Shown: positions 22,813 to 57,666 of the stretch, piece by piece
How positions within the stretch are numbered: the stretch's first letter is position 1
Layout: each line of letters starts with the position of its first letter
NCBI GenBank assembly: GCA_016212185.1
Contig: JACRGX010000090.1
Span: 1 to 64,000 of the forward strand
Direction: 5' to 3'
DNA length: 64,000 nt
Origin: Nitrospirota bacterium
GTDB taxonomy: Bacteria > Nitrospirota > Thermodesulfovibrionia > UBA6902 > DSMQ01
The notes under the pieces: generated by a model
Told to the model about the DNA's origin: nothing
Database searches by the model: none
What the model saw: only the letters and a program-made list of their open reading frames with translations
Translations under genes and position numbers: made by a program

Positions 22813-22832
22813 CAAAGGCATATATGCCTTTG
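22813..22832. repeat. Solo 20-bp palindrome CAAAGGCATATATGCCTTTG
   Basis: A perfect palindrome, identical in its arms to the ends of the adjacent nested element (AAAGGCAT...ATGCCTTT) 50 bp away. It could be an unused target site or an excision footprint of such an element. Confidence 0.7.
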
Positions 22833-22882
22833 TGAAACGATTCCGGACAAGCCGGAATGACAAATAAAGAAACACACCCTGA

Positions 22883-23035
22883 AAAGGCATGTATGTCTGA
22901 AAAACTTTAAGGCAACACATTAGCGTCATGCTGCCTTTTACAAATAGTTCAAAGACAACTACTTAAAACTTTTTGCAGCATGACTTTTAATAATCACAGT
23001 TGCTTTCTTAGAGTTTTGAAGGCATATATGCCTTT
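22883..23035. repeat. 150-bp nested palindromic element, copy 1
   Basis: Ends AAAGGCAT / ATGCCTTT; sub-terminal arms AAAAACTTTAAGGCAACA / TTGCTTTCTTAGAGTTTT; inner arms GTCATGCTGC / GCAGCATGAC. The same architecture recurs at 26352, 37247, 46197, 55175 and 57506. Confidence 0.85.
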
Positions 23036-23099
23036 GCTGTAAGATGCAGGATGCCATTAAGTTTCATCAATCCACTATTAACTGCGCACTTTAAACTGT

Positions 23100-23105
23100 T
23101 ATAAT
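23100..23105 (+). promoter_or_regulatory. TATAAT box immediately before lptF
   Basis: TATAAT with TTAACT 16 nt upstream as a plausible -35. It lies 8 nt before the lptF ATG, so the transcript would be leaderless or nearly so; no Shine-Dalgarno site is present. Confidence 0.6.
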
Positions 23106-23113
23106 TATTAACC

Positions 23114-24193
23114 ATGATAATTCACAGGGCAATATTCAAGGAACTTTTTTTCAACTTTCTCGTCGTAATCTCCTTCCTGACATTTGTCCTTTTCATGGAA
23201 AAATTTGTACGGATTACAAGGCTTGTCATGGGCAAGGGGACAGAGATGATAGACACCCTTAAGGTCTTTATGTTCCTTCAGCCGTCTATTCTGCTCCTTT
23301 CAATACCGATGGCGGTCCTCATAGCCGTATTTTTGACTTACGGCAGAATGGCTACGGATAATGAAACAATCGCTCTGAAAAGCAGCGGCATGAGTTTCTG
23401 GCTTATCTCAAAGCCTGCCGTTACATTCTCAATCGCTGGCTTTGCCGTTCTTCTTTTCATCAGCCTTTACCTCCTGCCGAAAAGCGTGCACTCATTCAAG
23501 CAGACCTTGTATGAGGTAATTGCAAAAAAAACGTCAATGACCATTGAGGAGCAGACATTTTCAAAGGTCTTTAAGGGGACAGTGATATTTGTAAAAAAAA
23601 TGTCGGGTGACAGTTTCAGGGGGGTCTTTGTTTACACCGACCCCGATTCTTCCGCAAAACAGCCTCTCGTAATAGTGGCTAAAGACGGCGCAGTGCGCTC
23701 TTATCCTGAAGACGGACTGATAGAGCTGAATATGCACGACGGATTAATCCATACATTTTCAGACAGGGGCTCTTCAGAGGTAACTTTCAGGGATTATAAT
23801 TTAGTGCTGACATCTGCTATAGAGACCAAAAGGGAACAGAAACTTGATGAAGTCAAATTTCTTGACTTATGGAGGGATAAGGGAGATAAGCCCTTATGGC
23901 ATGTTGAAATAAACAGGCGGCTGGCTATTCCATTTGCATGCCTGATATTCGGGCTTCTCGCCCCTGCCCTTGCCACAAAAATAGGCAAAACAGGCCGTGT
24001 CGGAAGTTTTTCCTTCAGCATTTCCGTGCTGATATTGTATTACTTTATATTCATATTCGGAGAAGGGCTTGCAAAGGCAGGAAGGCTTTCACCGTTACTT
24101 GGATGCTGGGGACCAAACATGCTGTTCGGCATTGCGGCAATCATTTTTTATTATTTCGCTCATAAAGACAAACTGGTATTTAAAAGAAGTTAA
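23114..24193 (+). CDS. lptF: LPS export permease LptF
   Basis: Inner-membrane subunit of the LptB2FG ABC complex that extracts lipopolysaccharide from the inner membrane. The 359 residues show the YjgP/YjgQ pattern: N-terminal helices (FLVVISFLTFVLF; PSILLLSIPMAVLIAVFLTYGRMATDNETIALKSSGMS), a periplasmic beta-jellyroll (about 130-250) and C-terminal helices after WHVEINRRLAIPFACLIFGLLAPAL. lptG follows after 7 nt. Presence shows an LPS-bearing outer membrane. Confidence 0.93.
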   Translation: MIIHRAIFKELFFNFLVVISFLTFVLFMEKFVRITRLVMGKGTEMIDTLKVFMFLQPSILLLSIPMAVLIAVFLTYGRMATDNETIALKSSGMSFWLISKPAVTFSIAGFAVLLFISLYLLPKSVHSFKQTLYEVIAKKTSMTIEEQTFSKVFKGTVIFVKKMSGDSFRGVFVYTDPDSSAKQPLVIVAKDGAVRSYPEDGLIELNMHDGLIHTFSDRGSSEVTFRDYNLVLTSAIETKREQKLDEVKFLDLWRDKGDKPLWHVEINRRLAIPFACLIFGLLAPALATKIGKTGRVGSFSFSISVLILYYFIFIFGEGLAKAGRLSPLLGCWGPNMLFGIAAIIFYYFAHKDKLVFKRS

Positions 24194-24200
24194 GAGTTAG

Positions 24201-25271
24201 ATGAAAATTTTATCAAAATATTTTTTAAAGGAATTTCTAAAATTCTTTTTTATCATTCTGCTGGTGCTGACGGCAATCCTGCTGGTTGCGGAATTTTTTG
24301 ACAAAGTAAATGAATTTTACTCTCAGAAACCTCCCGCTTACCTGGTAGTTGAATATCTTTTGCTTCAGTGCCCTAAATTTTTATTATTTGCATCGCCTGC
24401 GGCATCCCTGCTGTCCATTCTCCTTACTATCGGAATTGCAATGAAATGGAAGGAGACGGTGGTGATTCAGGCCTCGGGGCTGAGTTTAAAAAAATTCTTC
24501 TCCTCTTTTATTGTTACAGGGATTATAATCAGCATTTTTGCCCTGCTTATAGGTGAAACCATTGTCCCTGCCGCGACAAGAAAGGCGTCATGGGTAAGAA
24601 ATCACATGATATTACAGAAACAGTCCAGAATTACATATCAGGAAGGTGCGTTATGGCTTAAGGGCCGTGACAGCAGTTTAATCCGCATCAGAGATTTTGT
24701 CGGAGATAAAAACACCATCCTGAAAATCAGCATATTCAACTTTGACCATGTCTTTGGATTAATCAGCAGGACCGAGGCTGAAAGCGCCAGATGGATTGAT
24801 AAGAAATGGGAGCTTAACAATGTAACAGTATTTGACTTTTCCGGCAATAAAACCACAAAACACAAATCCATTGTCTCTCAGGCCATTGAAGAGCCCAGGA
24901 TTTTCAAGGAAGAGATGCGTAAGCCGGAAGAGATGAATTTTATTGAGCTCTATGCCTATTACAAAAGACTTGAGAAGGCAGGATTTAAAAACCTTAAATA
25001 TGTCGTTGACCTTTACGGGAAACTTGCTTATCCGATGGTGAATTTTGTCATGGTGCTTTTTGGAATAGCCCTTGTCCTGAACAGCAGGCTGGGAGGCGGC
25101 TTAAAGGCAGCGGGGCTGGGTATTGTTGTGAGTATTTGCTACTGGCTTATTTATTCAATCAGCACATCCCTCGGCAACACAGGCGCCATACCGCCATGGC
25201 TTGCGCCCTGGATAGGGCTGGTTCTTTTCAGTACAGGCGGGGGATATATGTATTTGAGGATTAGAGAGTAA
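24201..25271 (+). CDS. lptG: LPS export permease LptG
   Basis: Partner of LptF in the LPS exporter, 356 residues, same six-helix plus periplasmic jellyroll layout. The segment ILLTIGIAMKWKETVVIQASGLS matches the LptG coupling helix region, and KLAYPMVNFVMVLFGIALVLNSR opens the C-terminal helices. It lies 7 nt after lptF with no promoter between, and ends at a strong bidirectional terminator shared with the convergent beta-propeller gene. Confidence 0.93.
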   Translation: MKILSKYFLKEFLKFFFIILLVLTAILLVAEFFDKVNEFYSQKPPAYLVVEYLLLQCPKFLLFASPAASLLSILLTIGIAMKWKETVVIQASGLSLKKFFSSFIVTGIIISIFALLIGETIVPAATRKASWVRNHMILQKQSRITYQEGALWLKGRDSSLIRIRDFVGDKNTILKISIFNFDHVFGLISRTEAESARWIDKKWELNNVTVFDFSGNKTTKHKSIVSQAIEEPRIFKEEMRKPEEMNFIELYAYYKRLEKAGFKNLKYVVDLYGKLAYPMVNFVMVLFGIALVLNSRLGGGLKAAGLGIVVSICYWLIYSISTSLGNTGAIPPWLAPWIGLVLFSTGGGYMYLRIRE

Positions 25272-25280
25272 AGAACAAGA

Positions 25281-25323
25281 AAAAAAGAGGGCAAGGTTTT
25301 AAATAACCTTGCCCTCTTTTTTT
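25281..25323. terminator. Bidirectional intrinsic terminator
   Basis: Long stem AAAAAAGAGGGCAAGGTT / AACCTTGCCCTCTTTTTT with loop TTAAAT; serves lptG (plus) and the convergent beta-propeller gene (minus). Confidence 0.94.
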
Positions 25324-26314
25324 AATTAACTATTGCGCCCCACGGCGAACCCGAATATGTGCTGTCAGTAGAAGGCGCAAGCTTTATCGTACCCGTGACT
25401 TTATTGTTTGCCGTGTCAATAACAGAAACCGAAACATCTCCGTGATTTACCACGTATAATTTGCCGCTTTCAGAATCAACCGCAGCGCCGATAGGCTCCT
25501 TGCCGACATTGATTTTTTCAATTACCTTGTCAGTATTAGTATCAACAACCGCCACTGCATTTTCTTCCCTTATTGTCACATACGCCCTGCTCTTTGCGGA
25601 ATCAACGGCAATGTACCACGCCGCCTTTCCGATGTCTATCGTGCCCGTTTCTTTATTGTTCTTTGCGTCAATGACCATCAACTTCCCTTTGCCGTGAATC
25701 GCCACATAAACCTTTTTTTTGCTCTGGTCCACCGCAACGCCGAGCGGCGTGTCAATCGTCTTAATTGTATCCATCACCTTATTGTCCGCAGTATTAAGTA
25801 CTGAAACAGTCCAGTCGCCTGAATTGCTTACAAAGAGCTTATTGTCAATAATCTTCATGTCAAACGGTCCGACTCCCACTTCAATCTTGCCTTTAACCGT
25901 ATTGGTTTTTAGGTCCAGCATTGAAAGCGTCTTATTTAGATTTTTTCCATCAACCATATTCTCCGTATCCGCGGCATACCCAATGCCGGCAGAGGGATTT
26001 AAAACTACAGACATTGGACCGATGCCTACCTTTATCTTTCCAACCACTTCATTGCTTGCAAGGTCTATCACAGAAACCGTACTGTCGCCGGGGCTAGAAT
26101 TAACAACATACAGCTTCTTGCTTGCGGAGTCAATCGCCATACCGGCAGGCCAGACGCCCACCCTTATTGTCATTACCACCTCGTTTTTTGCAGTATCAAT
26201 AACCGAAACTGTATTGTTGCCTGAATTACTAACATACACCTTCCCTGCATAGGCAACCACAGGCAGAATGATTAAGGCAGTAACTGCAAATAACAAAAAA
26301 ACCTTTGATTTCAT
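25322..26314 (-). CDS. Secreted YVTN-type beta-propeller repeat protein
   Basis: 330 residues with a signal peptide (about 1-23, ending AYAG) followed by seven or so repeats of the pattern VYVSNSGNNTVSVIDTAKNEVV-TI-VG-P-G-A, i.e. a seven-bladed beta-propeller of the YncE/surface-layer YVTN class. Such proteins are periplasmic or surface-bound, often in protein or metal binding. No catalytic residues or heme motif are visible, so the exact role is unknown. It is followed by the shared terminator and preceded by a nested palindromic element. Confidence 0.85.
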   Translation of the reverse strand: MKSKVFLLFAVTALIILPVVAYAGKVYVSNSGNNTVSVIDTAKNEVVMTIRVGVWPAGMAIDSASKKLYVVNSSPGDSTVSVIDLASNEVVGKIKVGIGPMSVVLNPSAGIGYAADTENMVDGKNLNKTLSMLDLKTNTVKGKIEVGVGPFDMKIIDNKLFVSNSGDWTVSVLNTADNKVMDTIKTIDTPLGVAVDQSKKKVYVAIHGKGKLMVIDAKNNKETGTIDIGKAAWYIAVDSAKSRAYVTIREENAVAVVDTNTDKVIEKINVGKEPIGAAVDSESGKLYVVNHGDVSVSVIDTANNKVTGTIKLAPSTDSTYSGSPWGAIVN

Positions 26315-26351
26315 TGCGTCCTCCTTAAAGTGTTGAATGTTATATTCTAAA

Positions 26352-26506
26352 CAAAGTCATGTATGTCTGAAAAATTTTAAGGCAACACATCAGCGTCATG
26401 CTGCCTTTTGCAAATAGTTCAATGACACATACTTAAAACTTTTTGCAGCATGACAGACAATAATTTTTGTTGCTTTCTTAAAGTTTTGAAGGCATATATG
26501 ACTTTG
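26352..26506. repeat. 150-bp nested palindromic element, copy 2
   Basis: Ends CAAAGTCAT / ATGACTTTG: both differ from copy 1 (GGC to GTC, GCC to GAC) in a compensating way. Inner arms GTCATGCTGC / GCAGCATGAC are unchanged. Confidence 0.85.
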
Positions 26507-26535
26507 ATGTCAAATTCCAAATGTCAAATTCCAAA

Positions 26536-26563
26536 CATACAAAGTCATATATGACTTTGTATG
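26536..26563. repeat. Solo 28-bp perfect palindrome
   Basis: Centre CAAAGTCATATATGACTTTG, extended to CATA...TATG on both sides. It carries the same GTC/GAC variant as the neighbouring copy 2 and lies 30 bp from it. Confidence 0.7.
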
Positions 26564-26600
26564 AGATGCAGTATTTTATATAATGTCACCCGATTAATTG

Positions 26601-27275
26601 TCAAGCTAATGCATCAGCTTCCTTTATTATCTCTACGCCGGAGCTTGTGCCTATTCTCGTTGCCCCTGCCCCGATAAATGACAGCGCATCCTTCAGTGTC
26701 TTAATCCCACCTGCGGCTTTTATGCCAATCTTTCCTTTAGTTATATCCCTTATCATTACAATGTCCTTTACCATTGCCCCTGCCGGAGCAAATCCCGTAG
26801 ACGTTTTCACAAATTCAGCGCCGGTATCCATCACAGCCAAAGATGCCTTTATTTTTTCATCGTCTGAAAGATAACATGTTTCTATAATTACCTTGTGAAC
26901 TGCAGACGGAGTGGCAGTTGCAAAATCGGAAATCTCTTTTTTCACAGCATCCCACCTGCCAGCTTTGGCTGCACTGATGTTCATCACCATATCAAGCTCG
27001 TCAGCGCCTTCATGCACAGATTTCATTGCTTCAAACACCTTTGCCCCTGAGAAAGTTGCGCCGAGAGGGAAACCGATTACTGTCGTAATCCTGACACCGC
27101 TTCCGCTAAGAATCTTTTTAGCTGTTTTTATAAAACACGGGTGGATGCATACCGAGAAAAAACCATATTCCTTAGCCTCTGCGCAAAGTCTTTCAATGTC
27201 TTTCAGGGAGGCGGCGGGCTTAAGAAGGGTATGGTCAATCAGATTTGCTATGTTAACATTGCTGTCTATTTTCAT
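26601..27275 (-). CDS. deoC: Deoxyribose-phosphate aldolase
   Basis: Class I aldolase that splits 2-deoxyribose 5-phosphate into glyceraldehyde 3-phosphate and acetaldehyde in nucleoside catabolism. The 224 residues include IDHTLLKP, VCIHPCF, VIGFPLG, ELDMVMN, the Schiff-base lysine motif EFVKTSTGF and GIKAAGGIKT. It lies 24 nt downstream of the aminotransferase gene; this pairing has no obvious metabolic logic. Confidence 0.95.
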   Translation of the reverse strand: MKIDSNVNIANLIDHTLLKPAASLKDIERLCAEAKEYGFFSVCIHPCFIKTAKKILSGSGVRITTVIGFPLGATFSGAKVFEAMKSVHEGADELDMVMNISAAKAGRWDAVKKEISDFATATPSAVHKVIIETCYLSDDEKIKASLAVMDTGAEFVKTSTGFAPAGAMVKDIVMIRDITKGKIGIKAAGGIKTLKDALSFIGAGATRIGTSSGVEIIKEADALA

Positions 27276-27299
27276 TGAACAAAACAGATATACCCGGGA

Positions 27300-28163
27300 T
27301 TATTTGTGAGCCTTTATATATTCATCAACTTTTTTTCTGTAGGCTGCAAGAAGCGCTTTGGTGATTCTCCCTGTCTTTGAACCTATCTTGATGTCATCAA
27401 TTTTTGTTACGGGCATAATCTCCCTTGTAGTGCTTGATATGAAAACCTCATCGGCGTCATACACGTCGTCAGGGATGAACCTTCCTTCACTGAGTTTCAT
27501 TCCGGCTTCATCCGCCAGATTCAGGATGATGCGCCTTGTTATCCCGTCCAGAATGCCGACCTCAAGCTCAGGCGTAAAAAGGGTTTTGTTTTTTATAAAA
27601 AAAATGTTTGATGTCGTGCCTTCGGCAATGTAACCTTTGTAATTAAGCATTATTGCCTCATGAGCGTCTTCCTTCATCCCCTCTATGTTTGCAAGGACAT
27701 TGTTTAAAAAATTAAGCGATTTTATCATCGGGTTGAGCGCGTTCTTAAAATTTCTCCTTACATTAACTATGACAACCTTCACTCCTTTTTCATAGTATTG
27801 TTCAGGGTAATCCTTAAACGGATTGCAGATTATTACAAAGGTAGGCTCGGGACAGAGCCGCGGGTCCAGCCCTATGGGACCGGCGCCCCTTGAGATATTT
27901 ATCCTGATAAATGCTTCTTTCAGTTTATTGGCCCTAATTGTTTTATATACAGCCTTTTTGATATCAGCAGGGCTCATCGGGATTTTAAGCCCTATCATGG
28001 CCGCCGAACGGAAAAGGCGTTCAATATGCTCATCAAACTTAAACGCAACACCGTCATACGCCCTTAGCGTTTCATAGATGCCGTCGCCATAGAGAAATCC
28101 GTGGTCAAAGACAGAAATCAGGGCTTTATCCCTTAGAACGAGTTTGTTGTTAAGATATATCAC
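27300..28163 (-). CDS. Class IV aminotransferase (branched-chain type)
   Basis: PLP enzyme of fold type IV, 287 residues. MIYLNNKLVLRDKALISVFDHGFLYGDGIYETLRAY is the family N-terminus, the PLP lysine is in MIKSLNFLNNVLA, and EGTTSNIFFIKN and STTREIMPVTKID are conserved. The closest role is branched-chain aminotransferase (IlvE); D-amino-acid aminotransferase or aminodeoxychorismate lyase cannot be ruled out. The start is GTG at 28163 without a clear ribosome-binding site. Confidence 0.85.
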   Translation of the reverse strand: MIYLNNKLVLRDKALISVFDHGFLYGDGIYETLRAYDGVAFKFDEHIERLFRSAAMIGLKIPMSPADIKKAVYKTIRANKLKEAFIRINISRGAGPIGLDPRLCPEPTFVIICNPFKDYPEQYYEKGVKVVIVNVRRNFKNALNPMIKSLNFLNNVLANIEGMKEDAHEAIMLNYKGYIAEGTTSNIFFIKNKTLFTPELEVGILDGITRRIILNLADEAGMKLSEGRFIPDDVYDADEVFISSTTREIMPVTKIDDIKIGSKTGRITKALLAAYRKKVDEYIKAHK

Positions 28164-28231
28164 AAGATAAGTTTATCATGAATGAACCATGATTTTCCAT
28201 ATAAACCATAAGGCGGAAGTTTCCAGCGCGG

Positions 28232-28260
28232 TTGTCAAATAAAGATTATTTTTGTATACT
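28232..28260 (+). promoter_or_regulatory. Sigma-70 promoter of the epimerase operon
   Basis: TTGTCA at 28232-28237 and TATACT at 28255-28260 with an exact 17-bp spacer. The start point would lie near 28267, about 55 nt before the epimerase ATG. Confidence 0.7.
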
Positions 28261-28321
28261 CATACATCACATTAAGCAAAGCAGTAATAGTAATCAGGAG
28301 AGGCAGGGCATCACAATAATA

Positions 28322-29284
28322 ATGAAGGCGCTTATTACAGGCGGTGCAGGTTTTATCGGTTCACACCTTGCTGAAGAGCTTCTTGAGCAGGGACATGAGG
28401 TTTATCTCATTGACGACCTCTCCACAGGGAGCATTGAAAACATAGAACATTTGAAAAACCGCAAAGGGTTTCATTATATGATAGACACCATTTTAAACTC
28501 TCCGGTTATTGCCGAACTCGTGGATAAATGCGATGTGGTTTTCCACATGGCTGCAGCGGTTGGAGTAATGCTGATTGTAGAAAGCCCTGTGCGCACCATA
28601 GAGACCAATATCAAAGGCACGGAAGAGATACTCCTGCATGCCAACAAGAAAAAAAGGAAGGTGATAATTGCCTCCACCTCTGAAGTTTACGGCAAGAGCG
28701 ACCAGAAATCTTTCAGGGAAGACAGCGACCTTATTCTCGGACCAACGACAAAAAACAGATGGAGCTACGCCTGTTCAAAGGCAATAGATGAATTTCTGGC
28801 GCTGGCTTACTGGAAAGAAAAGAACCTCCCGGTCGTTATTATAAGGCTGTTTAACGTTGTCGGTCCCCGGCAGACCGGAAGATACGGTATGGTCATTCCA
28901 AGATTTGTAAAGCAGGCGCTTCTTAACCATCCAATTACCGTCTTCGGCGACGGCAAGCAGTCAAGGTGCTTTTCCCATGTGAAAGACACCGTAAGAGCGC
29001 TTGTAAAACTCAGCCAGACGGATGAGGCTGTAGGTGAAGTCATTAATACCGGCAGTGACAATGAAATATCAATAGAGGACCTGGCAAAAAAGGTCAAAGA
29101 GCTGGCAAAAAGCAGGTCAAAAATCCAGTACATTCCGTACAGCGATGCATACGAAGAGGGTTTTGAGGATATGATGAGGCGCGTCCCGGACCTTAATAAG
29201 GTAAAAAAGCTAATTGATTATAAGCCGCAATACTCTCTTAATGATGTACTCAAAGATGTAATAGATTATTATAAAGGTCATTAA
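28322..29284 (+). CDS. NAD-dependent nucleotide-sugar epimerase/dehydratase
   Basis: Extended short-chain dehydrogenase, 320 residues. GGAGFIGSH binds NAD, STSEVYGKS and YACSK supply the Ser/Tyr/Lys catalytic set, and RLFNVVGPRQTGRYGMVIPRF plus FGDGKQSRCF place it near UDP-glucose epimerases and UDP-glucuronate decarboxylases. The start is set at MKALITGGAGF (28322); upstream codons lie in the promoter and leader. AGGAGAGG is rather far (about 18 nt). The following glycan gene starts 3 nt after, so both act in surface polysaccharide synthesis. Confidence 0.85.
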   Translation: MKALITGGAGFIGSHLAEELLEQGHEVYLIDDLSTGSIENIEHLKNRKGFHYMIDTILNSPVIAELVDKCDVVFHMAAAVGVMLIVESPVRTIETNIKGTEEILLHANKKKRKVIIASTSEVYGKSDQKSFREDSDLILGPTTKNRWSYACSKAIDEFLALAYWKEKNLPVVIIRLFNVVGPRQTGRYGMVIPRFVKQALLNHPITVFGDGKQSRCFSHVKDTVRALVKLSQTDEAVGEVINTGSDNEISIEDLAKKVKELAKSRSKIQYIPYSDAYEEGFEDMMRRVPDLNKVKKLIDYKPQYSLNDVLKDVIDYYKGH

Positions 29285-29287
29285 AAA

Positions 29288-31066: not shown

Positions 31067-31131
31067 CCCGCCTGTTGTCTCCCCTTTATATTCCGGCTTT
31101 TCAACTGAATTATACCCCTTAATTTAGATGA

Positions 31132-31157
31132 TACTTATAGTCTATAGACTTATAAGC
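31132..31157 (+). promoter_or_regulatory. C-box operator of the restriction-modification controller
   Basis: Two inverted-repeat boxes, TACTTATAGTC (31132-31142) and GACTTATAAGC (31147-31157), separated by TATA. This matches the GACTNNNAGTC layout bound by controller (C) proteins. It lies 32 nt upstream of the C gene, where it would let the protein first activate and then repress its own promoter. Confidence 0.75.
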
Positions 31158-31189
31158 ATCATTTGATCAACAATGATCTCTAAGAAATT

Positions 31190-31408: not shown

Positions 31409-31474
31409 TGTCAGATAAAATTTGTTTAAATCCCAATTGGCGGTCATTGACCCAAAAATACATCCACCAGTGTC

Positions 31475-31544: not shown

Positions 31545-31567
31545 GTCTAAAAGACGGCAGAGTATAG

Positions 31568-36296: not shown

Positions 36297-36325
36297 ATTC
36301 TTAAAAAGGGTTCGAGGATTTCTTT

Positions 36326-36387
36326 CATTGCAAAATGCAAAATTAACATTTATCAATTTACAATGATAATTGCTAATTGATAATTTT
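36326..36387. repeat. TTGCAAAAT / TGATAATT repeat
   Basis: Family of AT-rich words (ATTGCAAAATGCAAAATT, ACAATGATAATT, AATTGATAATT). Relatives lie at 48324, 48741, 51719 and 59783. Confidence 0.65.
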
Positions 36388-37246: not shown

Positions 37247-37405
37247 AATAACGGCATGTATGTTTGAAAAACTTTAAGGCAACACCCTAATGTCATGCTG
37301 CCTTTTAACAAATAGTTCAGGGTAAAAACTTAAAACTTTTTGCAGCATGACAGATAATAATCATTGTTGCATTCTTAAAGTTTTGAAAATATATATGCCG
37401 TTATT
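37247..37405. repeat. 150-bp nested palindromic element, copy 3
   Basis: Ends AATAACGGCAT / ATGCCGTTATT, a third terminal variant. Sub-terminal GAAAAACTTTAAGGCAACA pairs with TGTTGCATTCTTAAAGTTTT; inner GTCATGCTGC with GCAGCATGAC. It lies between comF and nfnA. Confidence 0.85.
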
Positions 37406-37469
37406 GTTCATTTTAATCTCTATTTATAACACACCCCTGCACCCCTCTTATTTAGAGGGGAATTTTGTG

Positions 37470-48380: not shown

Positions 48381-48382
48381 GT

Positions 48383-48739: not shown

Positions 48740-48740
48740 A

Positions 48741-48779: not shown

Positions 48780-48796
48780 ATGTTTTATGGGGGAAA

Positions 48797-49651: not shown

Positions 49652-49709
49652 CTAATCTAATTTCTTGCTTTATCCGTATAATCTGCTATAATTTCTCTAT
49701 ACATAAAGA

Positions 49710-50402: not shown

Positions 50403-50442
50403 CAAGTACTATAGAAATTGCTGCGGAATCAATCCCTGACAG

Positions 50443-51477
50443 TCATCTGCTTTTAAGAAGCACCTCTTGAGGATTCATTTCAATCCTGTACAGCCCCGCA
50501 ATTGCATTATTTACAGGCAGCACTTTAAGATAAAACCTTTCACTCCCGATTGAAACTGCCACATCAACCTCTGTCAGGTGTCTTGCGTCTGAATATCTTG
50601 CGCATAAAGACGCTGCCGATGTCAATGTTTCATCACCTGCAATGCCGGAAATAATAGTCACCGGGCTTCCGTATCCTTCCACCTGCAATACATACTCCTC
50701 TGCGCCTGCAAGCGATAAAATGGCTTCATTTTCATTTTTATCTCTTCCGACAATAATCTTGCATTCAGGCGAAACCCTGAAATGTCTTCCTATCCTTAAA
50801 AGATTTATGTCTTTTAACTCCGGGTCTTTTTTATAAGCAAGCAGTTCTTTCAGCCTGAATGAATAGTTCGGCTCGGTCAGGAGACAGCCGCCCGCAGGCG
50901 CCGGATACTCTGTAAGTCCGAATTCCTTTGCAAGCGCCATCTGCGGTTTTCTTGAGCGCCCGTTAAAATCATAAAACAGGTCCCTGCTGACAATCCCCTT
51001 CTGCTCCGGAATTGTAATATCCAGCAGTTTTGCGCTGAGGGGCCTCAGCACATATCCCCTGACATCTGCTGTCTTGTCAATCATAGGGAAGTTGGTTTTC
51101 TTCTGGCTCATCGGCCTCTGCCCTAACACTTCGCCGGTAATTATGAAGTCAGCCCCTGTCAGGCGCATCAACTCGCTTGCCTCTTTAAGCATTAATATCC
51201 TGCAGTCAATGCAGGGATTCATGTTTTTGCCGTGCCCGAATCTCGGGTTTTTAACAATCTCAATGAACTTATCTGCTAAATGGTGGAGCTTGACCTTGAA
51301 TCCGAATTTCTCAGCCGCAGAAAACGGGTCTTTTGAGCATGACGACCTGTCAGAGATATCACAGCCGAAATGGGTGAGAAAGGTAACGGCGGTTACTTCA
51401 ATCCCCTGCCTCATGACAGCAAGGATGGCAAGCGTGCTGTCCAGCCCTCCAGAATATAGCGCAACTGCTTTTGACAT
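50443..51477 (-). CDS. PP-loop ATPase related to ThiI/MnmA
   Basis: 344 residues. The PP-loop SGGLDSTLAI binds ATP, NPCIDCRILM carries a Cys pair, and ITGEVLGQRPMSQ and PAPAGGCLLTEP are typical of ThiI-like tRNA thiolation proteins in anaerobes. There is no THUMP domain; the C-terminal half (LLRIGRHFRVSPECKIIVGRDKNEN) resembles a NFACT-type RNA-binding fold. A role in tRNA 4-thiouridine or a related sulfur transfer is likely, but the exact product is uncertain. Confidence 0.78.
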   Translation of the reverse strand: MSKAVALYSGGLDSTLAILAVMRQGIEVTAVTFLTHFGCDISDRSSCSKDPFSAAEKFGFKVKLHHLADKFIEIVKNPRFGHGKNMNPCIDCRILMLKEASELMRLTGADFIITGEVLGQRPMSQKKTNFPMIDKTADVRGYVLRPLSAKLLDITIPEQKGIVSRDLFYDFNGRSRKPQMALAKEFGLTEYPAPAGGCLLTEPNYSFRLKELLAYKKDPELKDINLLRIGRHFRVSPECKIIVGRDKNENEAILSLAGAEEYVLQVEGYGSPVTIISGIAGDETLTSAASLCARYSDARHLTEVDVAVSIGSERFYLKVLPVNNAIAGLYRIEMNPQEVLLKSR

Positions 51478-51531
51478 TGTCAGTCCTTTCCCTCCCGGGC
51501 ATTAGTAAAATGCTATAATACTATTACTTTT

Positions 51532-51596
51532 GTCATTCCGTGCTTGACACGGAATCCAGAAAAAAAATACTGGATTCCCGCCTTCGCGGGAATGAC
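51532..51596. repeat. GTCATTCC...GGAATGAC inverted repeat
   Basis: GTCATTCCGTGCTTGACACGG, GAATCCAG, then CTGGATTCCCGCCTTCGCGG and AATGAC. Close to the copy at 2161. Confidence 0.8.
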
Positions 51597-51718
51597 AGCA
51601 TGTGTGGGCATTAGTATTATGCGATACTTATTAGTTTACAGAAAATTCCAGTAATGTCAAAATTTTATGAAGAAGCAGATAAGAAACATGAAACCACAGA
51701 GGGCACAGAGTTTTTTCC

Positions 51719-51780
51719 ATTGCAAAATTATCAATTATCATTTCAAAATGCAAATTTAAAATGATAAATTTACAATGAAT
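51719..51780. repeat. TTGCAAAAT / TGATAAATT repeat
   Basis: Nearly the same word order as 59783-59857: TTGCAAAATTATCAATTATC, TTTCAAA-TGCAAAT, ATGATAAATTTACAATGAAT. Confidence 0.7.
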
Positions 51781-51799
51781 TTTTTCCAGGAGGCAAACC

Positions 51800-53188
51800 T
51801 TGAACACGGTATCTTACGAGCTTTTATCAAAGCTTATTAAAAAAGCCCTTTCAAAGGGCGGGGATTATGCCGATGTTTTTATAGAGCATACCCGCTCTAC
51901 TTTCATCCAGATTGAGGATGACAAGGTTGAAAAGCTTGTCACAGGCCTTGATTCTGGAATAGGCATACGGGTCATCATCGGCGAAAAATCCGCCTATGCA
52001 TACGGCAATGACTTTTCAGAAGAGGCCCTGTACGAACTTACCGCCGCAGTAAGCAAAGCGGCGTTGAATAAAGACAGAGCTGTAACCGTTGACCTTAGAA
52101 AAATAAAACCTCCGGTAGACTTTACCATAAAATTAAAACCAGAGGATGTTGTCATTGACAAAAAAATTCACCTCATAGAAAAGGCCAACAAAACCGCCCG
52201 AAGCGCAGGCTCTGAAATCAAGCAGGTGTCAGTAATTTATAAGGACTCCTCGCAGGACATCTGTGTTGCCTCATCAGATGGCGTAATCGCTGAAGACAAC
52301 CGTATTCACACGCTCGGCGTCATACATGTCGTTGCCGAAAAAAACAGCGTCCTTCAGACAGCATATGAACCGGTCGGCGGACTGACAGGCTTTGAACTAT
52401 TTGATGAAACTCCCTTTGATGAAATGGCGCGCAGTGCTGCGCAAAAGGCAGTTGCAATGTTAAGCGCAAAAAAAGCTCAGGGAGGAAGGATGCCGGTTAT
52501 AATTTCTTCAATGGCAGGCGGCACTATGATACATGAGGCGATAGGACACGGACTTGAAGCCGATCTTGTACAGCAGGGACTGTCGATTTTTTCAAATAAG
52601 GCAGGCGAGCTTGTGGCATCACCCTTGATTACAGTAATAGATGACTCAACCCTGCCCAGTAAAAGAGGCTCTTTCAGGTTTGATGACGAGGGGTCGCCGT
52701 CCCAACGCACCATACTTGTTGAAAAAGGGGTGCTCACCGGATATATGTATGACCGGCTGACGTCTCTGAAAGATAAAAAGCCTTCATCAGGCAACGGCCG
52801 GCGTGAATCTTACAAACACAGGCCTATTCCGAGAATGACCAATACGTTCATAGCCCCGGGCAGCAGTATTCCTGAAGAAATAATAAAGTCTGTTGAAAAA
52901 GGTTTTTTTGTCAAAAAGATGGGCGGAGGGCAGGTCAATACCGCCACTGGTGAATTTGTCTTTGAAGTTTCAGAAGGATATTTGATAGAAAAAGGTATGC
53001 TTGGAGAACCAGTAAGGGGCGCTACCCTTATCGGCAACGGTCCTGAAATCTTAAAATCCATAGATATGGTCGGCAGCGATCTTGGCTTCGCAATCGGGAC
53101 CTGCGGAAAAGATATGCAGGGAGTCCCTGTTTCTGATGCTATGCCCACAGTCAGAATACCGGAAATAGTTGTCGGAGGAACCGTTTAG
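51800..53188 (+). CDS. tldD: Metalloprotease TldD
   Basis: 462 residues. With TldE it forms a heterodimeric zinc peptidase that cleaves unfolded peptides and matures modified peptides. The zinc motif HEAIGHGLEADLV (about 246-258) and the later GSFRFDDEGSPSQRT and GFFVKKMGGGQVNTATGEFVFEV match TldD rather than TldE. Translation starts at TTG, with CAGGAGG 7 nt before. tldE is not adjacent. Confidence 0.93.
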   Translation: MNTVSYELLSKLIKKALSKGGDYADVFIEHTRSTFIQIEDDKVEKLVTGLDSGIGIRVIIGEKSAYAYGNDFSEEALYELTAAVSKAALNKDRAVTVDLRKIKPPVDFTIKLKPEDVVIDKKIHLIEKANKTARSAGSEIKQVSVIYKDSSQDICVASSDGVIAEDNRIHTLGVIHVVAEKNSVLQTAYEPVGGLTGFELFDETPFDEMARSAAQKAVAMLSAKKAQGGRMPVIISSMAGGTMIHEAIGHGLEADLVQQGLSIFSNKAGELVASPLITVIDDSTLPSKRGSFRFDDEGSPSQRTILVEKGVLTGYMYDRLTSLKDKKPSSGNGRRESYKHRPIPRMTNTFIAPGSSIPEEIIKSVEKGFFVKKMGGGQVNTATGEFVFEVSEGYLIEKGMLGEPVRGATLIGNGPEILKSIDMVGSDLGFAIGTCGKDMQGVPVSDAMPTVRIPEIVVGGTV

Positions 53189-53330
53189 AGCCTTTGTTTA
53201 ACTGCCGCTGTTAATTAATGTTATGCAAAATAGATACTAATAGATGTGTTTATGATACACCTCGCAATATTATCTGCTTGATTTTAAAGGAAAAGCTCTC
53301 TGGTACTTAATTTGCTTTAATATATTCATA

Positions 53331-54224
53331 ATGCGCTATCAACATACATTAAAACAGGAAGTCACGGTAAGCGGCATAGGACTTCACACAGGCAGAATGA
53401 TTAACATGCGGCTTAAGCCCGCGCCGCGGGACACAGGCATAATTTTCATCAGGACAGACAAGGGTAATGCAGAGATAAAGGCCTGTGTAAATTCCGTAGT
53501 AGACACGATATTTGCCACTAATTTAGGCTTTAACGGCGTACGGGTGGGAACGGTTGAGCACCTCCTGTCCGCATTAGCCGGTCTTAATATAGATAATCTT
53601 TATGTTGAACTTGACGGCTCTGAAGTCCCGATAATGGACGGCAGCGCCTTTGTCTTTACACAAAAGATAACTGAGACAGGCATAGCAAAGCAGGCAAAGA
53701 AGATTTCATGCCTAAGAATTATAAAACCTTTTTCAATTGAAGAGGAGTTCTGCCAGATTGCAGTCATGCCGTATGAAGGCACCAAGGTGACATACCGTGT
53801 TCATCACAAACACCCCGCCTTCGGAGAACAGAAAATGAGCATTGATATAACCGGCACAAACTTCATCAAAGAGCTTGCGCCTGCAAGGACCTACGGATTT
53901 CTGAAGGACGTAAATTTCCTCCGGTCTAAGGGATTGGCGCGGGGCGGCTCGCTGGAAAATGCGCTTGTTCTCGGGGAAAACGGACTAATCAACAAAAACA
54001 AACTAAGATTCAAGAACGAATTTGTGCGTCATAAAATCCTTGATGCAATAGGCGATATATCATTGCTCGGACTGCCGATTTACGGCCATATAATCGCAAA
54101 CAAGGCAGGACATGCCCTAAATATAAAATTTATAAAAAAGCTTCTTTCATTTAAAGACGCCTGGGAAATAGTCTCAGAGCCGCATATCTCTCCTTCTTCA
54201 TCAGCGCTCGTCGCGTCCGTATAA
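53331..54224 (+). CDS. lpxC: UDP-3-O-acyl-N-acetylglucosamine deacetylase
   Basis: Zinc enzyme for the committed step of lipid A synthesis, 297 residues. The motifs are GIGLHTG, VGTVEHLLSALAGLNIDN (zinc His), SEVPIMDGSA, PARTYGF, FVRHKILDAIGDISLLG (zinc His/Asp) and the catalytic His in NKAGHALN. No Shine-Dalgarno; TAATAT lies 7 nt before the ATG. It confirms a lipid A outer membrane. Confidence 0.95.
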   Translation: MRYQHTLKQEVTVSGIGLHTGRMINMRLKPAPRDTGIIFIRTDKGNAEIKACVNSVVDTIFATNLGFNGVRVGTVEHLLSALAGLNIDNLYVELDGSEVPIMDGSAFVFTQKITETGIAKQAKKISCLRIIKPFSIEEEFCQIAVMPYEGTKVTYRVHHKHPAFGEQKMSIDITGTNFIKELAPARTYGFLKDVNFLRSKGLARGGSLENALVLGENGLINKNKLRFKNEFVRHKILDAIGDISLLGLPIYGHIIANKAGHALNIKFIKKLLSFKDAWEIVSEPHISPSSSALVASV

Positions 54225-54252
54225 ATATAAGCCATTCCGCCAAATTCCAACT

Positions 54253-54300
54253 CAATAACGGCATATGTGCCTGAGAAACTTTAAGGGCAACACCCTAATC
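54253..54300. repeat. Half copy of the 150-bp nested palindrome
   Basis: Only the left arm remains (AATAACGGCATATGTGCCTG, GAAACTTTAAGGGCAACACC); it stops where the terminator of the small peptide gene begins. It is either truncated by, or fused with, that terminator. Confidence 0.7.
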
Positions 54301-54347
54301 AAAAAAGAAGGGCAGCTGCATCCTGTTATTTCAGGATGCAGCTGCCC
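54301..54347 (-). terminator. Intrinsic terminator of the 19-residue peptide gene
   Basis: Perfect 16-bp stem GGGCAGCTGCATCCTG / CAGGATGCAGCTGCCC, 6-nt loop, and TTCTTTTTT tail on the minus strand. Confidence 0.9.
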
Positions 54348-54370
54348 TAAAAACAACTCAACTGCAAAAG

Positions 54371-54430
54371 TTATTTTTTCTTCTTCTTTGCTGTTTTCTT
54401 CTTAGCAGCAGCTTTCTTCTTGGCGGCCAT
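54371..54430 (-). CDS. 19-residue Lys/Ala-rich peptide
   Basis: A tiny gene encoding MAAKKKAAAKKKTAKKKKK. It has GGGGGTGAG about 6 nt before the ATG and a perfect intrinsic terminator 24 nt after the stop, both on the same strand, so it is probably expressed. The AAKKK repeats resemble the DNA-binding tails of histone H1-like and AlgP-type proteins. It lies downstream of the winged-helix gene, separated by the palindrome TATCCCGG-GTTTA-CCGGGATA. Function unknown; a nucleoid-associated role is only a guess. Confidence 0.6.
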   Translation of the reverse strand: MAAKKKAAAKKKTAKKKKK

Positions 54431-54450
54431 TCCTACTCACCCCCTTTCAT

Positions 54451-54471
54451 ATCCCGGGTTTACCGGGATAA
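54451..54471. promoter_or_regulatory. Palindrome TATCCCGG-N5-CCGGGATA, candidate operator
   Basis: 8-bp arms around GTTTA, between the winged-helix gene and the small peptide gene, directly upstream of the peptide's ribosome-binding site. There is no T-run, so it is an operator candidate rather than a terminator. Confidence 0.45.
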
Positions 54472-54473
54472 GT

Positions 54474-55019
54474 CTATAATCTTCCAAGCAATAAAATTTT
54501 TTTTGCATTCAAAAGTTTTTTTAAACGCGCATCGCCCTTTCTTTTCTTCGTCTTGTAGTCCATTTCATTCATAACGGTATAGTGCAATTCCCTGCCAAAA
54601 CGTTTTTCAACCTCGCTGAGATTATTCTTAAGATTATTGGAATCGCAGACAATAAACAGATTTATTGAGGGGACATCCGAGCCTTCCGCATAAGGCCCGT
54701 AAATAAAAGCAGTCTTTACCGAAGAAACTCTGAGCGTTGATTTAAGGGCTCCGGGAAGCCCGAGGGACTTTGCAATCAATCCTTTCAGCTCTGGAAAAGG
54801 AGGAGAGTCTTTGTTGACCTTAAAATATTTTAGATTGCCTTCCTTTTCACTCATAACAAGCCCCATCTTTTCCAGCTTGTCCAGTTCTCTCTTAACGCCT
54901 GACGGATTTTTTCTTACCAGCCTTGCAATCTCCCTGACATAAAATTTTTCTTCAGGACTGTTAAAAAGCAAAGACATAATGTCTGCTCTTATTCCTGATG
55001 TAAAAAGTTTCTCTAACAT
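54474..55019 (-). CDS. Winged-helix regulator with degenerate nucleotidyltransferase domain
   Basis: 181 residues. The N-terminal winged helix (LFTSGIRADIMSLLFNSPEEKFYVREIARLVRKNPSGVKRELDKLEKMGLV) resembles ArsR/MarR-type DNA-binding domains. The C-terminal part resembles a minimal nucleotidyltransferase, but the usual GS and D-x-D catalytic motifs are replaced by YGPYAEGSDVPSINLFIV, so it is probably inactive and used for ligand or protein binding. It reads towards the small Lys/Ala peptide gene and the palindrome at 54451, its likely target. Confidence 0.78.
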   Translation of the reverse strand: MLEKLFTSGIRADIMSLLFNSPEEKFYVREIARLVRKNPSGVKRELDKLEKMGLVMSEKEGNLKYFKVNKDSPPFPELKGLIAKSLGLPGALKSTLRVSSVKTAFIYGPYAEGSDVPSINLFIVCDSNNLKNNLSEVEKRFGRELHYTVMNEMDYKTKKRKGDARLKKLLNAKKILLLGRL

Positions 55020-55174
55020 TCTTTCTCTAATATTATTTATATAACATTATTTTTACATTGTCAAGAAAAAAATGCAAAAAAAGAACGGACAAACACTTTT
55101 TGTAAACAATTTAGTTGTTGCCAATAGGGATACTTTTGTTGCTAAATAGTAAACAATCTTAAATCAGATGCAGG

Positions 55175-55331
55175 ATAACGGCATATGTGCTTGAAAAACT
55201 TTAAGGCAACACCTTAATGTCATGCTGCCTTTTTACAAATAGTCCGGGTTAAATACTTAAAACTTTTTGCAGCATGACTGATAATAATCTTGATTGCATT
55301 CTTAAAGTTTTGAAGGTATATATGCCGTTAT
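55175..55331. repeat. 150-bp nested palindromic element, copy 5
   Basis: Ends ATAACGGCAT / ATGCCGTTAT; sub-terminal GAAAAACTTTAAGGCAACA / TTGCATTCTTAAAGTTTT; inner GTCATGCTGC / GCAGCATGAC. Very close to copy 3. Confidence 0.85.
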
Positions 55332-55387
55332 TGTTCAATCCGTCATAGGCGGACAAGTCGTGCATCGTATACCCTGATACCGTGTGA

Positions 55388-55393
55388 TATAAT
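55388..55393 (+). promoter_or_regulatory. TATAAT box directly before amrS
   Basis: Perfect -10 box 7 nt before the ATG, without Shine-Dalgarno. Confidence 0.55.
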
Positions 55394-55400
55394 ATTACCT

Positions 55401-56483
55401 ATGAAAGAGGCAATGTTTTACAAAAAACTTAAAGACGGGAAAGTGCAGTGTTTTCTCTGCGCCCATCACTGCGTTATATCTGACGGCAGGCGCGGTATTT
55501 GCGGCGTCAGGGAAAATAAAGGAGGCGCGCTTTACAGCCTGGTCTATGGAAAAATCATTTCAATGAACATAGACCCTATTGAGAAAAAACCTCTGTTCCA
55601 CTTTCACCCGGCCTCAAAGTCTTTTTCAATCGCAACAGTCGGATGTAATTTCAGATGCATGCACTGCCAGAACTATGATATTTCACAGTACCCTAAAAAC
55701 AGTTATAAGTTAAAAGTTAAGAGTTATGAGTTAAAAGATAAAAAAAACTCAGATGCCGAAAACCGAATTCCAGACGCCAAACATGAAATACCCGGGGAAG
55801 CCGTTACTCCTGAAGAAATAGTTGACGCAGCTATAGGAGCAGGCTGTAAAAGCATTTCATATACTTATACAGAACCGACTATATTTTTTGAGTTTGCATA
55901 TGACTGCGCCGGAATTGCGCATGATAAAGGAATTAAAAACGTCTTTGTAAGCAACGGCTATACAGGTGTGGAAGCGGCAAGGGCAATCGCCCCTTATCTT
56001 GATGCAAATAATATTGACCTTAAAGGCGATGACAAATTTTACAAAAAAATCTGCGGCGCAAAACTTCAGCCGGTCCTTGATACAATAAAATTAATGGAGG
56101 ACTCCGGCGTCTGGGTTGAGATAACCACGCTTATCATTCCGGGGCATAATGATTCTGAAGAAACATTAAGATGGATAGCAGGGTTCATCAAGTCCGTTGA
56201 TGCATCAATCCCCTGGCATGTAAGCCAGTTTTATCCTACATACAAGATGCTTGATACACCGCGGACTCCTGTAGAAACACTCAGGCGGGCAAGAAAGATA
56301 GGTTTTGAAGCCGGACTTAAATATGTATATGAAGGGAATGTGCCGGGCGAAGGCGGAGAGAATACTCATTGCCCATCCTGTAAAGAATTGCTTATTGAAC
56401 GCCTTGGGTTTTATATTAAAGAGAATAAGATGAAAGACGGCGCGTGCTTTAATTGCAAGACAAAGATTGAAGGTGTCTGGTAA
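55401..56483 (+). CDS. amrS: AmmeMemoRadiSam-system radical SAM protein
   Basis: 360 residues. The radical SAM cluster is VGCNFRCMHCQNYDIS (CxxxCxxC, about residues 82-89), preceded by the family's N-terminal Cys set (CFLCAHHCVISDGRRGICGVREN). GNVPGEGGENTHCPSC and a C-terminal FNCKTKI add further Cys ligands. Usual partners AmrA/AmrB are not visible. Residues about 99-130 (SYKLKVKSYELKDKK and SDAENRIPDAKHEIPGE) are encoded by AGTTAAAAGTTAAGAG-type repeats and are extra relative to the family. Confidence 0.88.
   Translation: MKEAMFYKKLKDGKVQCFLCAHHCVISDGRRGICGVRENKGGALYSLVYGKIISMNIDPIEKKPLFHFHPASKSFSIATVGCNFRCMHCQNYDISQYPKNSYKLKVKSYELKDKKNSDAENRIPDAKHEIPGEAVTPEEIVDAAIGAGCKSISYTYTEPTIFFEFAYDCAGIAHDKGIKNVFVSNGYTGVEAARAIAPYLDANNIDLKGDDKFYKKICGAKLQPVLDTIKLMEDSGVWVEITTLIIPGHNDSEETLRWIAGFIKSVDASIPWHVSQFYPTYKMLDTPRTPVETLRRARKIGFEAGLKYVYEGNVPGEGGENTHCPSCKELLIERLGFYIKENKMKDGACFNCKTKIEGVW
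55699..55746. repeat. AGTTA(T/A)AAG-type tandem inside amrS
   Basis: AGTTATAAGTTAAAAGTTA then AGAGTTATGAGTTAAAAGAT, translated SYKLKVKSYELKDKK; in frame and absent from the family core. Confidence 0.65.
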
Positions 56484-56496
56484 AGGGGGATAATTC

Positions 56497-57153
56497 ATGA
56501 GCAAGAAACTGACAGATGAAATACTTGAGCTTTTATGGTCCTTAAGGGAGAAAGGCTCAAAGAGTTATTCCGATGTCATCAAAAATCTTGATGATAAAAA
56601 AACGCCTGAAGTCATCAGGAAAATGGAAAAGGCTGATTTGATACACGTCTCCGGAGACACGATTGAGTTAAAGGAAAAAGGCGAGAGCCGGGCCAGTGAT
56701 CTAACCAGAAGGCACCGCCTGGCAGAAAGGCTTTTCCATGATGTTCTTGAAGTAAGCATGGAAGAAAGCGAACACACTGCTTGCGAGGTTGAGCATTTTC
56801 TTTCCCCGGCAGTCACTGACAGCGTATGCGCCTTTTTGGGACATCCTCCGACATGCCCGCACGGCAAACCGATTCCAAAGGGAGAGTGCTGTTTCAAATA
56901 CAGCCGCGAGGTAAAGCCGCTTGTCATCCAGTTAAAAGACCTTGAGGTCGGCTCTGAGGCAAGGATTGTTTACATAACCCTTTCCAAAAAAGATAAAAGC
57001 TTAAGGCTTGAGCGTCTTGCATCTCTGGGGATAGTGCCGGGCAGTATTATCAGATTAAAACAAAAAGGACCGCCGTTTGTGCTGGAGATAGAAGAAACGA
57101 CATTAGCTATAGACTCGCCGATTGCAGAGGAGATTTACGTCAGAAAAACCTGA
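56497..57153 (+). CDS. DtxR/MntR-family metal-dependent repressor with FeoA-like domain
   Basis: 218 residues: winged helix (1-65), DtxR metal-binding and dimerisation region with RRHRLAERLFHDVLEVSMEESEHTACEVEHFLSPAVTDSVCAFLGHPPTCPHGKPIP, and a C-terminal SH3-like FeoA domain (RIVYITLSKKDKSLRLERLASLGIVPGSIIRLKQKGPPFVLEIEETTLAID). It represses iron or manganese genes when metal-bound. The GECC cysteines after KPIP are a subgroup feature. It lies 13 nt after amrS, in the same operon. Confidence 0.9.
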   Translation: MSKKLTDEILELLWSLREKGSKSYSDVIKNLDDKKTPEVIRKMEKADLIHVSGDTIELKEKGESRASDLTRRHRLAERLFHDVLEVSMEESEHTACEVEHFLSPAVTDSVCAFLGHPPTCPHGKPIPKGECCFKYSREVKPLVIQLKDLEVGSEARIVYITLSKKDKSLRLERLASLGIVPGSIIRLKQKGPPFVLEIEETTLAIDSPIAEEIYVRKT

Positions 57154-57162
57154 GTAATGTCT

Positions 57163-57477
57163 TCATTCCTGCGGCTTGCTCAGGTCCTGAGCCTTATTTT
57201 TATAATCATCTATCTGTTCCCTGAGTTTTTTTATCTCCTCAATTGACTGAAGGATGATAAAATCCTTGAGCACTGCCTTTTCCTCTTTTTCTTTCAGCTC
57301 CAGCACCCTCCTGCCGATATCCCTGCAAAGATCCTCGACCTTTGCCTCAAGCTTACTGCTTGCATACAGCAATTGCGCCATAGAGGTCTCGGCCTTGAGC
57401 CTGTCGGCAAGAAAGGTGGCAACCCATTTTACGCTCTTTACACCTTCGTTAAGGTTTTTCCTTACCCTGTCAATCAT
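57163..57477 (-). CDS. Coiled-coil protein of unknown function
   Basis: 104 residues, mostly helical, with heptad-like Leu/Lys/Glu runs (RDIGRRVLELKEKEEKAVLKDFIILQSIEEIKKLREQIDDYKNKAQ). AAAGGAGG precedes the ATG. It is convergent with the DtxR gene. No known family recognised. Confidence 0.7.
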   Translation of the reverse strand: MIDRVRKNLNEGVKSVKWVATFLADRLKAETSMAQLLYASSKLEAKVEDLCRDIGRRVLELKEKEEKAVLKDFIILQSIEEIKKLREQIDDYKNKAQDLSKPQE

Positions 57478-57505
57478 AAAACCTCCTTTCCTGTATCCTG
57501 TTCTT

Positions 57506-57666
57506 AATATAACAGCATATGTGTCTGAGAAACTTTAAGGCAACACCTTAATGTCATGCTGCCTTTTTTTATGGTTCAGAGCAAATACTTAAAATTTTTT
57601 GCAGCATGACAGATAATAATCATCGTTGCATTTTTAAAGTTTTGAAGATATATATGCCGTTATATT
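57506..57666. repeat. 150-bp nested palindromic element, copy 6
   Basis: Ends AATATAACAGCAT / ATGCCGTTATATT (one mismatch), the longest terminal arms of the set. Inner arms GTCATGCTGC / GCAGCATGAC are intact. It lies between recG and the coiled-coil gene. Confidence 0.85.

What the first reader, a model, noticed from the sequence alone, without database searches (positions are those of the whole stretch)
22813..57666. Family of about 150-bp nested palindromes whose ends vary but stay complementary within each copy
Six full copies (22883, 26352, 37247, 46197, 55175, 57506) and a half copy (54253) share sub-terminal and inner arms. The outermost arms differ: AAAGGCAT, CAAAGTCAT, AATAACGGCAT, AAAGCAT, AATATAAC-GCAT. 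Within each copy the two ends remain complementary (at most one mismatch). Simple duplication would not give such matched changes; either the pairing is under selection, or each copy sits in a different palindromic target. All lie between genes, none in a coding region. No transposase is nearby, so they may be miniature elements moved in trans, or structured RNA/DNA elements.
Basis: seen in the sequence. Interest (0 to 1): 0.8.

Follow-up and report, generated by a model that had tools for sequence, protein, structure and literature searches.

The report
Widespread foldable DNA repeats in Nitrospirota
The genome carries dozens of scattered 155-170-base hairpin-forming repeats whose two ends change in step; relatives across one whole class of Nitrospirota have them too, and one particular strand's fold appears to be preserved by evolution, pointing to an undescribed family of small mobile elements.

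Summary
Six full copies, one half copy and two solo outer palindromes lie in the window. The genome has about 60 or more copies and a congener a similar number. Relatives turn up in 43 of 346 sampled Nitrospirota genomes, all of one class. Ends are matched within copies well above chance, and the pairing stops about 9 bp outside the conserved arm. Distant copies have 28 different 17-nt outer arms, almost all still paired. (1) Wobble pairs are strand-specific: G.U far exceeds A.C in one element orientation, so a folded single strand (RNA or ssDNA) is under selection; at orthologous loci stems diverge 4%, loops 10%. (2) At several orthologous loci the interior is flipped in place and ends differ in concert, as template switching between arms predicts. 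(3) Elements lie antisense to co-directional flanking genes about 3:1, also in other genera. Insertion into pre-existing palindromic targets is not supported: two sites lacking the element also lack the arms. Not attC sites, no Rfam match, no RAYT linkage. Best reading: a new family of REPIN/YPAL-like non-autonomous elements recognised by fold. The enzyme, and RNA versus ssDNA, remain open.

The parts
22880..23039 (+). full element, family A, between glutamine synthetase and LptF/G genes
   Evidence: CM R1 162.6 bits; flanking genes
22814..22831 (.). solo outer palindrome AAAGGCATATATGCCTTT, conserved at the orthologous place in the congener; probably a neighbour copy that lost its interior by deletion between the two arm palindromes (inference)
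   Evidence: pattern search
26350..26509 (+). full element with GTCAT/ATGAC end variant
   Evidence: CM R1 165.7 bits
26541..26558 (.). solo outer palindrome with the same GTCAT variant as the adjacent full copy
37247..37406 (+). full element; antisense to both flanking genes; orthologous site in the congener holds a flipped element of lower identity (85%)
   Evidence: CM R1 181.5 bits
46192..46347 (-). full element in the opposite orientation, between convergent genes (ScpA and an AIR-synthase-related gene)
   Evidence: CM R1 153.6 bits
54253..54299 (+). half copy (5' arm only), followed by an unrelated GC-rich hairpin
55174..55333 (+). full element between divergent genes
   Evidence: CM R1 170.9 bits
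57508..57665 (+). full element with AATATAAC ends, next to recG
   Evidence: CM R1 165.6 bits

Best explanation
These are copies of an undescribed family of non-autonomous, dispersed palindromic elements of one Nitrospirota class. The single strand written here as '+' folds into a long interrupted hairpin: a free-sequence outer stem, a conserved core (GAAAA-RCTTTA..GCRAYACCTT / AATAA..RTYGC..TAAAGY-TTTGA) with conserved internal loops, and a variable apical part. Shown: dispersal, class-wide conservation of the core, covariation, strand-specific wobble tolerance, stems more conserved than loops at orthologous loci, orientation bias against co-directional genes, and in-place flipped copies. Inferred: the folded strand, most likely as single-stranded DNA, is the substrate of a trans-acting enzyme that reads structure and the conserved loops rather than terminal sequence, so ends are free to drift as long as they pair. 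Also inferred: replication template switching between the arms copies changes from one arm to the other and occasionally flips the interior, producing the matched ends within each copy.
For: Copy number: 62 strong copies in G000 and 50 in G001 examined; 13, 20, 10 and 27 hits in four other genera, none in most genomes of the order. Class-wide relatives in 43/346 genomes. Covariation: A4 34 of 41 pairs with double changes, score 0.409 against 0.192 shuffled and at most 0.092 slid; A5, other genera, 0.396 against 0.166. Distant set of 29: 28 distinct outer arms, WC 416, GU 47, AC 3. Wobble in the outer stem of A4: GU 264, AC 6. At 19 supported orthologous loci one-sided changes are GU-WC 30 to AC-WC 7 (p = 2e-4), and stems diverge 4.2% against 10.1% in loops (p = 3e-10). 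The bias also holds where no left-hand gene reads the folded strand. Orientation: (-,-) 44 against (+,+) 15 in G000/G001 and 25 against 9 in other genomes. Flips: interior identity flipped against as it lies is 0.97/0.59, 0.94/0.53, 0.90/0.57 and 0.90/0.56 at four loci. Concerted end changes including a matched insertion: L008/L055. Recent amplification in G002: a unit of about 225 bp, 92-97% identical in at least six places. Template switching gives both arm homogenisation and spacer inversion (PMC8604942). No pairing or conservation outside the stem, so no dedicated promoter for a full-length RNA is evident.
Against: No enzyme identified: the element is not found beside the six Y1/RAYT genes or the integron integrases, and neither gene's presence tracks the element. 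No clean insertion with a target duplication was seen; intergenic regions are heavily rearranged. Purifying selection at old, apparently immobile loci fits a cellular function as well as it fits mobility. The GU bias is weak at the outermost pairs (30:15) and absent in the inner helix (14:12), so the ends themselves may owe more to template switching than to selection. In the flipped loci usually only one immediate flank aligns. The genomes are draft metagenome assemblies, in which inverted repeats can be misassembled.
Confidence: 0.5

Rival explanations
1. A structured RNA: the '+' strand is transcribed and its fold is used in the cell (processing site, regulator, or RNA-based mobile element).
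For: G.U far above A.C is the classic RNA signature; conserved internal loops over a whole class; '+'-strand RNA fold more stable than the other strand in 103 of 112 copies; stems more conserved than loops.
Against: Most copies are antisense to their flanking genes; no conserved sequence outside the stem that could be a promoter; interiors flip relative to neighbours, so a cis role in one transcript is unlikely; no Rfam match.
Confidence: 0.28
2. Mutation alone: polymerase template switching between the arms keeps them complementary and flips interiors, without any selected function.
For: Arm homogenisation and spacer inversion are the known products (PMC8604942, PMC8794818); flips and matched multi-base end changes seen; double A-T/C-G transversions with few mismatched intermediates at column pair 6/239 (weakly supported tree).
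Against: It is blind to strand, so it does not predict G.U much above A.C; it would erase the asymmetric internal loops, which are conserved over a class; it does not explain slower stem divergence.
Confidence: 0.12
3. Each copy was inserted into a different pre-existing palindrome, so the ends are target sequence.
For: YPAL/RU-2 of Yersinia targets regions next to dyad symmetry (reviewed in PMC2229807); solo palindromes exist beside copies.
Against: Arms are absent from two element-free alleles (L140/L206, L161/L211); ends are not random but family-specific; pairing stops at a fixed distance; only a few solo palindromes in two genomes, the window's two adjacent to full copies.
Confidence: 0.05
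4. attC-like recombination sites of the integron integrases common in this clade.
For: Folded single-strand sites with free stems, lying antisense at gene 3' ends, resemble attC in behaviour (general knowledge); IntI-like proteins over the curated cut-off in G001, G002, G030 and many relatives.
Against: 0 of 112 elements have an R-box pair, while a typical 59-bp attC lies by an IntI gene in G002; IntI is also common in genomes without the element; copies are scattered singly, and none lies near the IntI loci searched.
Confidence: 0.05

Closest known systems
REPINs mobilised by RAYT (Y1) transposases
   Same: Dispersed extragenic palindromic hairpins, ssDNA fold, common compensatory changes (PMC3116915)
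   Different: REPIN ends are invariant ~16-bp REPs; here ends are the most variable part and the subterminal core is conserved; RAYT genes present but not flanked by the element
YPAL/RU-2 of Yersinia
   Same: ~168 bp, intergenic, no TA ends, internal inverted repeats (PMC2229807)
   Different: Different clade; targets next to dyad symmetry with 3-26 bp duplications, neither seen here; no strand-specific wobble or in-place flips reported in the text read
ERIC/RU-1, Correia/NEMIS and other bacterial MITEs
   Same: 100-170 bp intergenic hairpins of tens to hundreds of copies
   Different: Most have TA ends and conserved terminal inverted repeats (PMC2229807); here terminal repeats vary and no TA signature or target duplication was found
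Integron attC sites
   Same: Structure-recognised folded strand with free stem sequence (general knowledge)
   Different: No R-box pair, no arrays, typical attC sites coexist in the clade

Membership tests
REPIN/REP (RAYT-associated) | conserved REP sequences at both ends | tested here: not met
   Ends vary between copies; conserved part is subterminal
REPIN/REP (RAYT-associated) | cognate RAYT gene flanked by the same repeat | tested here: not met
   Six Y1_Tnp genes in G000, no element within the loci fetched around them; same gene also in genomes without the element
Bacterial MITE derived from an IS | terminal inverted repeats shared between copies and with an autonomous IS | tested here: inconclusive
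   Copies have inverted ends but of varying sequence; an autonomous element was not looked for exhaustively
Bacterial MITE derived from an IS | target-site duplication | tested here: inconclusive
   No clean empty/filled pair among 46 sites compared; flanks rearranged
YPAL/RU-2 | insertion at or next to dyad symmetry | tested here: not met
   Element-free alleles at two sites lack the arms; only two informative sites
Integron attC | RYYYAAC...GTTRRRY paired R boxes | tested here: not met
   0 of 112 copies
Integron attC | arrays next to an integron integrase | tested here: not met
   No copies in the IntI loci of G000, G001, G002, G030
Rfam RNA families | match to a described RNA family | tested here: not met
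   No match at gathering score in the window; permissive searches gave none or sub-threshold chance matches only
Structured RNA | transcription of the folded strand | not testable with these tools

The most novel reading that the evidence does not exclude
A class-wide family of mobile elements recognised as a folded single strand through conserved internal loops, with free-sequence but obligatorily paired ends, moved or flipped by an unknown enzyme: a fold-recognised system distinct from both attC/IntI and REP/RAYT.
Probability: 0.25. Interest if true: 0.85.

Novelty: new variant of a known kind. Interest (0 to 1): 0.6.

Why it matters
Palindromic repeats are often dismissed as debris. Here orthologous loci in two congeners plus relatives across a class allow two causes of matched arms to be told apart: selection on a folded strand (strand-specific wobble, slow stems) and replication template switching (matched multi-base changes, in-place flips). 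That makes the question of how hairpin repeats keep their pairing directly testable, and it points to an undescribed fold-recognised element family in a groundwater bacterial group.

Tried and rejected
Rfam search: nothing at threshold. RAYT link: genes present but unlinked and uncorrelated. Integron link: IntI common with and without the element, no R boxes. Palindromic-target model: arms absent from element-free alleles. Autonomous long version: not seen among hits; the 264-nt hit at L109 is a copy split by another repeat, and the similar hit at L141 was not examined further. Exact core pattern in viral contigs: none. Plasmid collection: only an unrelated short match. A published description: none found in the papers searched. 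L006/L153 was first listed as an orthologous pair, but the shared gene lies on the other side, so it was dropped from the counts. The tree-based count of end-pair changes rests on weakly supported branches and is used only as support.

Full report
OBSERVATION. The six full copies, the half copy and their matched ends are real. Two solo palindromes, 22814-22831 and 26541-26558, sit beside full copies and carry the same end variant as their neighbour. The repeat folds far better than shuffles. The copies lie between the main ORFs, and the flanking genes searched are ordinary housekeeping or regulatory genes, with no transposase among them.

SCALE. The window is part of a 2.33-Mb draft genome whose congener is a Nitrospirae groundwater MAG, JACQZD01. 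A covariance model built from 37 copies finds about 60 copies in each of the two genomes, 13 and 20 in two other genera of the family, 10 and 27 in two genomes of other families, and few or none elsewhere in the order. Some of these counts include weaker matches to the opposite strand of the same copy. A second, broader model finds relatives in 43 of 346 sampled genomes of the phylum, all in the same class; only eight candidates per genome were scored, so copy numbers there are lower limits. In 29 distant copies the outer arms are almost all different (28 distinct 17-mers) yet still paired, while a subterminal core is conserved: GAAAA-RCTTTA-nn-GCRAYACCTT on the 5' side and AATAA..RTYGC..TAAAGY-TTTGA on the 3' side.

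ARE THE ENDS REALLY MATCHED? Yes. Taking the conserved C9-G236 pair as anchor, positions 3-7 outward are complementary in 69-97% of the 62 copies of this genome, against 28-53% when partners are shuffled (z 7-10). Pairing falls to background at offset 10, in both genomes. Across the whole structure 34 of 41 pairs show changes on both sides, the covariation score is 0.409 against 0.192 shuffled and at most 0.092 with slid partners, and the same holds in other genera. The alignments are fitted to the model, which favours the structure; the end test uses ungapped flanks and does not depend on that.

SELECTION OR MUTATION? Two signals were separated. First, wobble: read in the element's own orientation, G.U pairs far outnumber A.C mismatches (outer stem 264 to 6 in the two genomes, 34 to 2 in other genera; 47 to 3 in distant copies). 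Neutral mutation and template switching are blind to strand, so this says that one folded single strand is what matters. Counting changes between orthologous copies, which avoids shared ancestry of copies, gives 30 GU-WC to 7 AC-WC (p = 2e-4), and stems have diverged 4.2% against 10.1% in loops at the same 19 loci (p = 3e-10). The bias is seen also where the left neighbour does not read the folded strand (16 to 5, p = 0.03). Limits: the bias is weak in the outermost pairs and absent in the inner helix.

Second, arm-to-arm copying. Flank comparison of the two genomes gave about two dozen orthologous sites. At several, the element lies in opposite orientations: interior identity flipped versus as it lies is 0.97/0.59, 0.94/0.53, 0.90/0.57 and 0.90/0.56 at four loci, and lower at three more. 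At L008/L055 both arms differ by the same substitution and the same one-base insertion. Template switching between inverted-repeat arms is known to homogenise arms and invert spacers (PMC8604942), and to create and maintain hairpins (PMC8794818). This is the simplest account of matched but drifting ends plus flips. Caveats: in the flipped loci usually only one immediate flank aligns, so ectopic replacement by another copy is possible at the less similar ones, and draft assemblies can misplace inverted repeats.

TARGETS AND TURNOVER. No clean insertion with duplication was found among the 46 sites compared (25, 21). Many relatives show remnants, nested repeats or a different subfamily at the same site (L019/L164, L021/L155, L143/L210). 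At two sites the element-free allele is nearly intact and contains no trace of the arms (L140/L206, L161/L211), so the arms belong to the element and not to a palindromic target. In G002 a version of about 225 bp is 92-97% identical in at least six places, so dispersal has been recent there.

ORIENTATION. Relative to flanking genes the folded strand is antisense: (-,-) 44 against (+,+) 15 in the two genomes (p = 2e-4; orthologous copies are counted in both, and this genome alone gives 25 to 8, p = 0.005) and 25 against 9 in other genomes (p = 0.009). Gene calls here are longest-ORF calls, not annotation. The other strand folds less stably as RNA in 103 of 112 copies, so one reading is that insertions giving the stronger hairpin in mRNA are removed; another is a replication-strand preference. 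These were not separated (flank GC skew is negative in 75 of 104, but it is confounded with gene direction).

KNOWN SYSTEMS. No Rfam family matches. REPINs share compensatory changes (PMC3116915) but have invariant ends and a flanked RAYT; neither is met here. attC sites share strand-specific folding, and the clade is rich in integron integrases, but 0 of 112 elements have R boxes and IntI does not track the element. YPAL/RU-2 is the closest in size and build (PMC2229807), but its dyad-symmetry target is not met at the two informative sites.

CONCLUSION. The finding is a new family of dispersed, foldable elements with a selected fold on one strand and arm homogenisation by template switching. 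I place ssDNA recognition by an unknown enzyme first (0.5), RNA second (0.28). Neither is proved.

Noticed in passing
L027:1499-1678, L017:692-869, L116:1063-1232, L124:1001-1175, G001 L164, G003 L174:866-1045: A small palindrome of the TGCCTGCC/GGCAGGCA type is inserted in several copies at the same place, the 3' internal loop between AATAAT and GTTGC, in three genomes.
   Followed up: partly
L109:1330-1593, many flanks (e.g. the L026 and L119 sites in G001), both genomes: A second abundant repeat, GTCATTCC(G/C)...GGAATGAC, about 60-120 bp and itself palindromic, fills many intergenic regions and splits some elements.
   Followed up: no
L106, L110, L111, L115, L116 (G000), L159 (G001): Copies of a diverged subfamily (AAAGCTTTAGRGCAACACC) often sit in adjacent inverted pairs 1-30 bp apart.
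   Followed up: partly
G000 L210 at the site of G001 L143; L019/L164; L021/L155: Orthologous intergenic sites are occupied by different subfamilies of the element in the two genomes, suggesting replacement or repeated insertion at the same place.
   Followed up: partly
G001:C180, G002:C35 and C17, G030:C1, and many relatives: Integron integrase family members with open frames of 375-549 aa are common in this Nitrospirota class; a typical 59-bp attC lies beside one in G002 (L245:135-193).
   Followed up: partly
G000 L209 at the site of G001 copy L031: Where the congener has an element, this genome has a classical GC-rich terminator-like hairpin instead.
   Followed up: no
window 36320-36386, 51712-51778, 59776-59856: AT-rich 67-bp direct repeats of another family in the window.
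   Followed up: no
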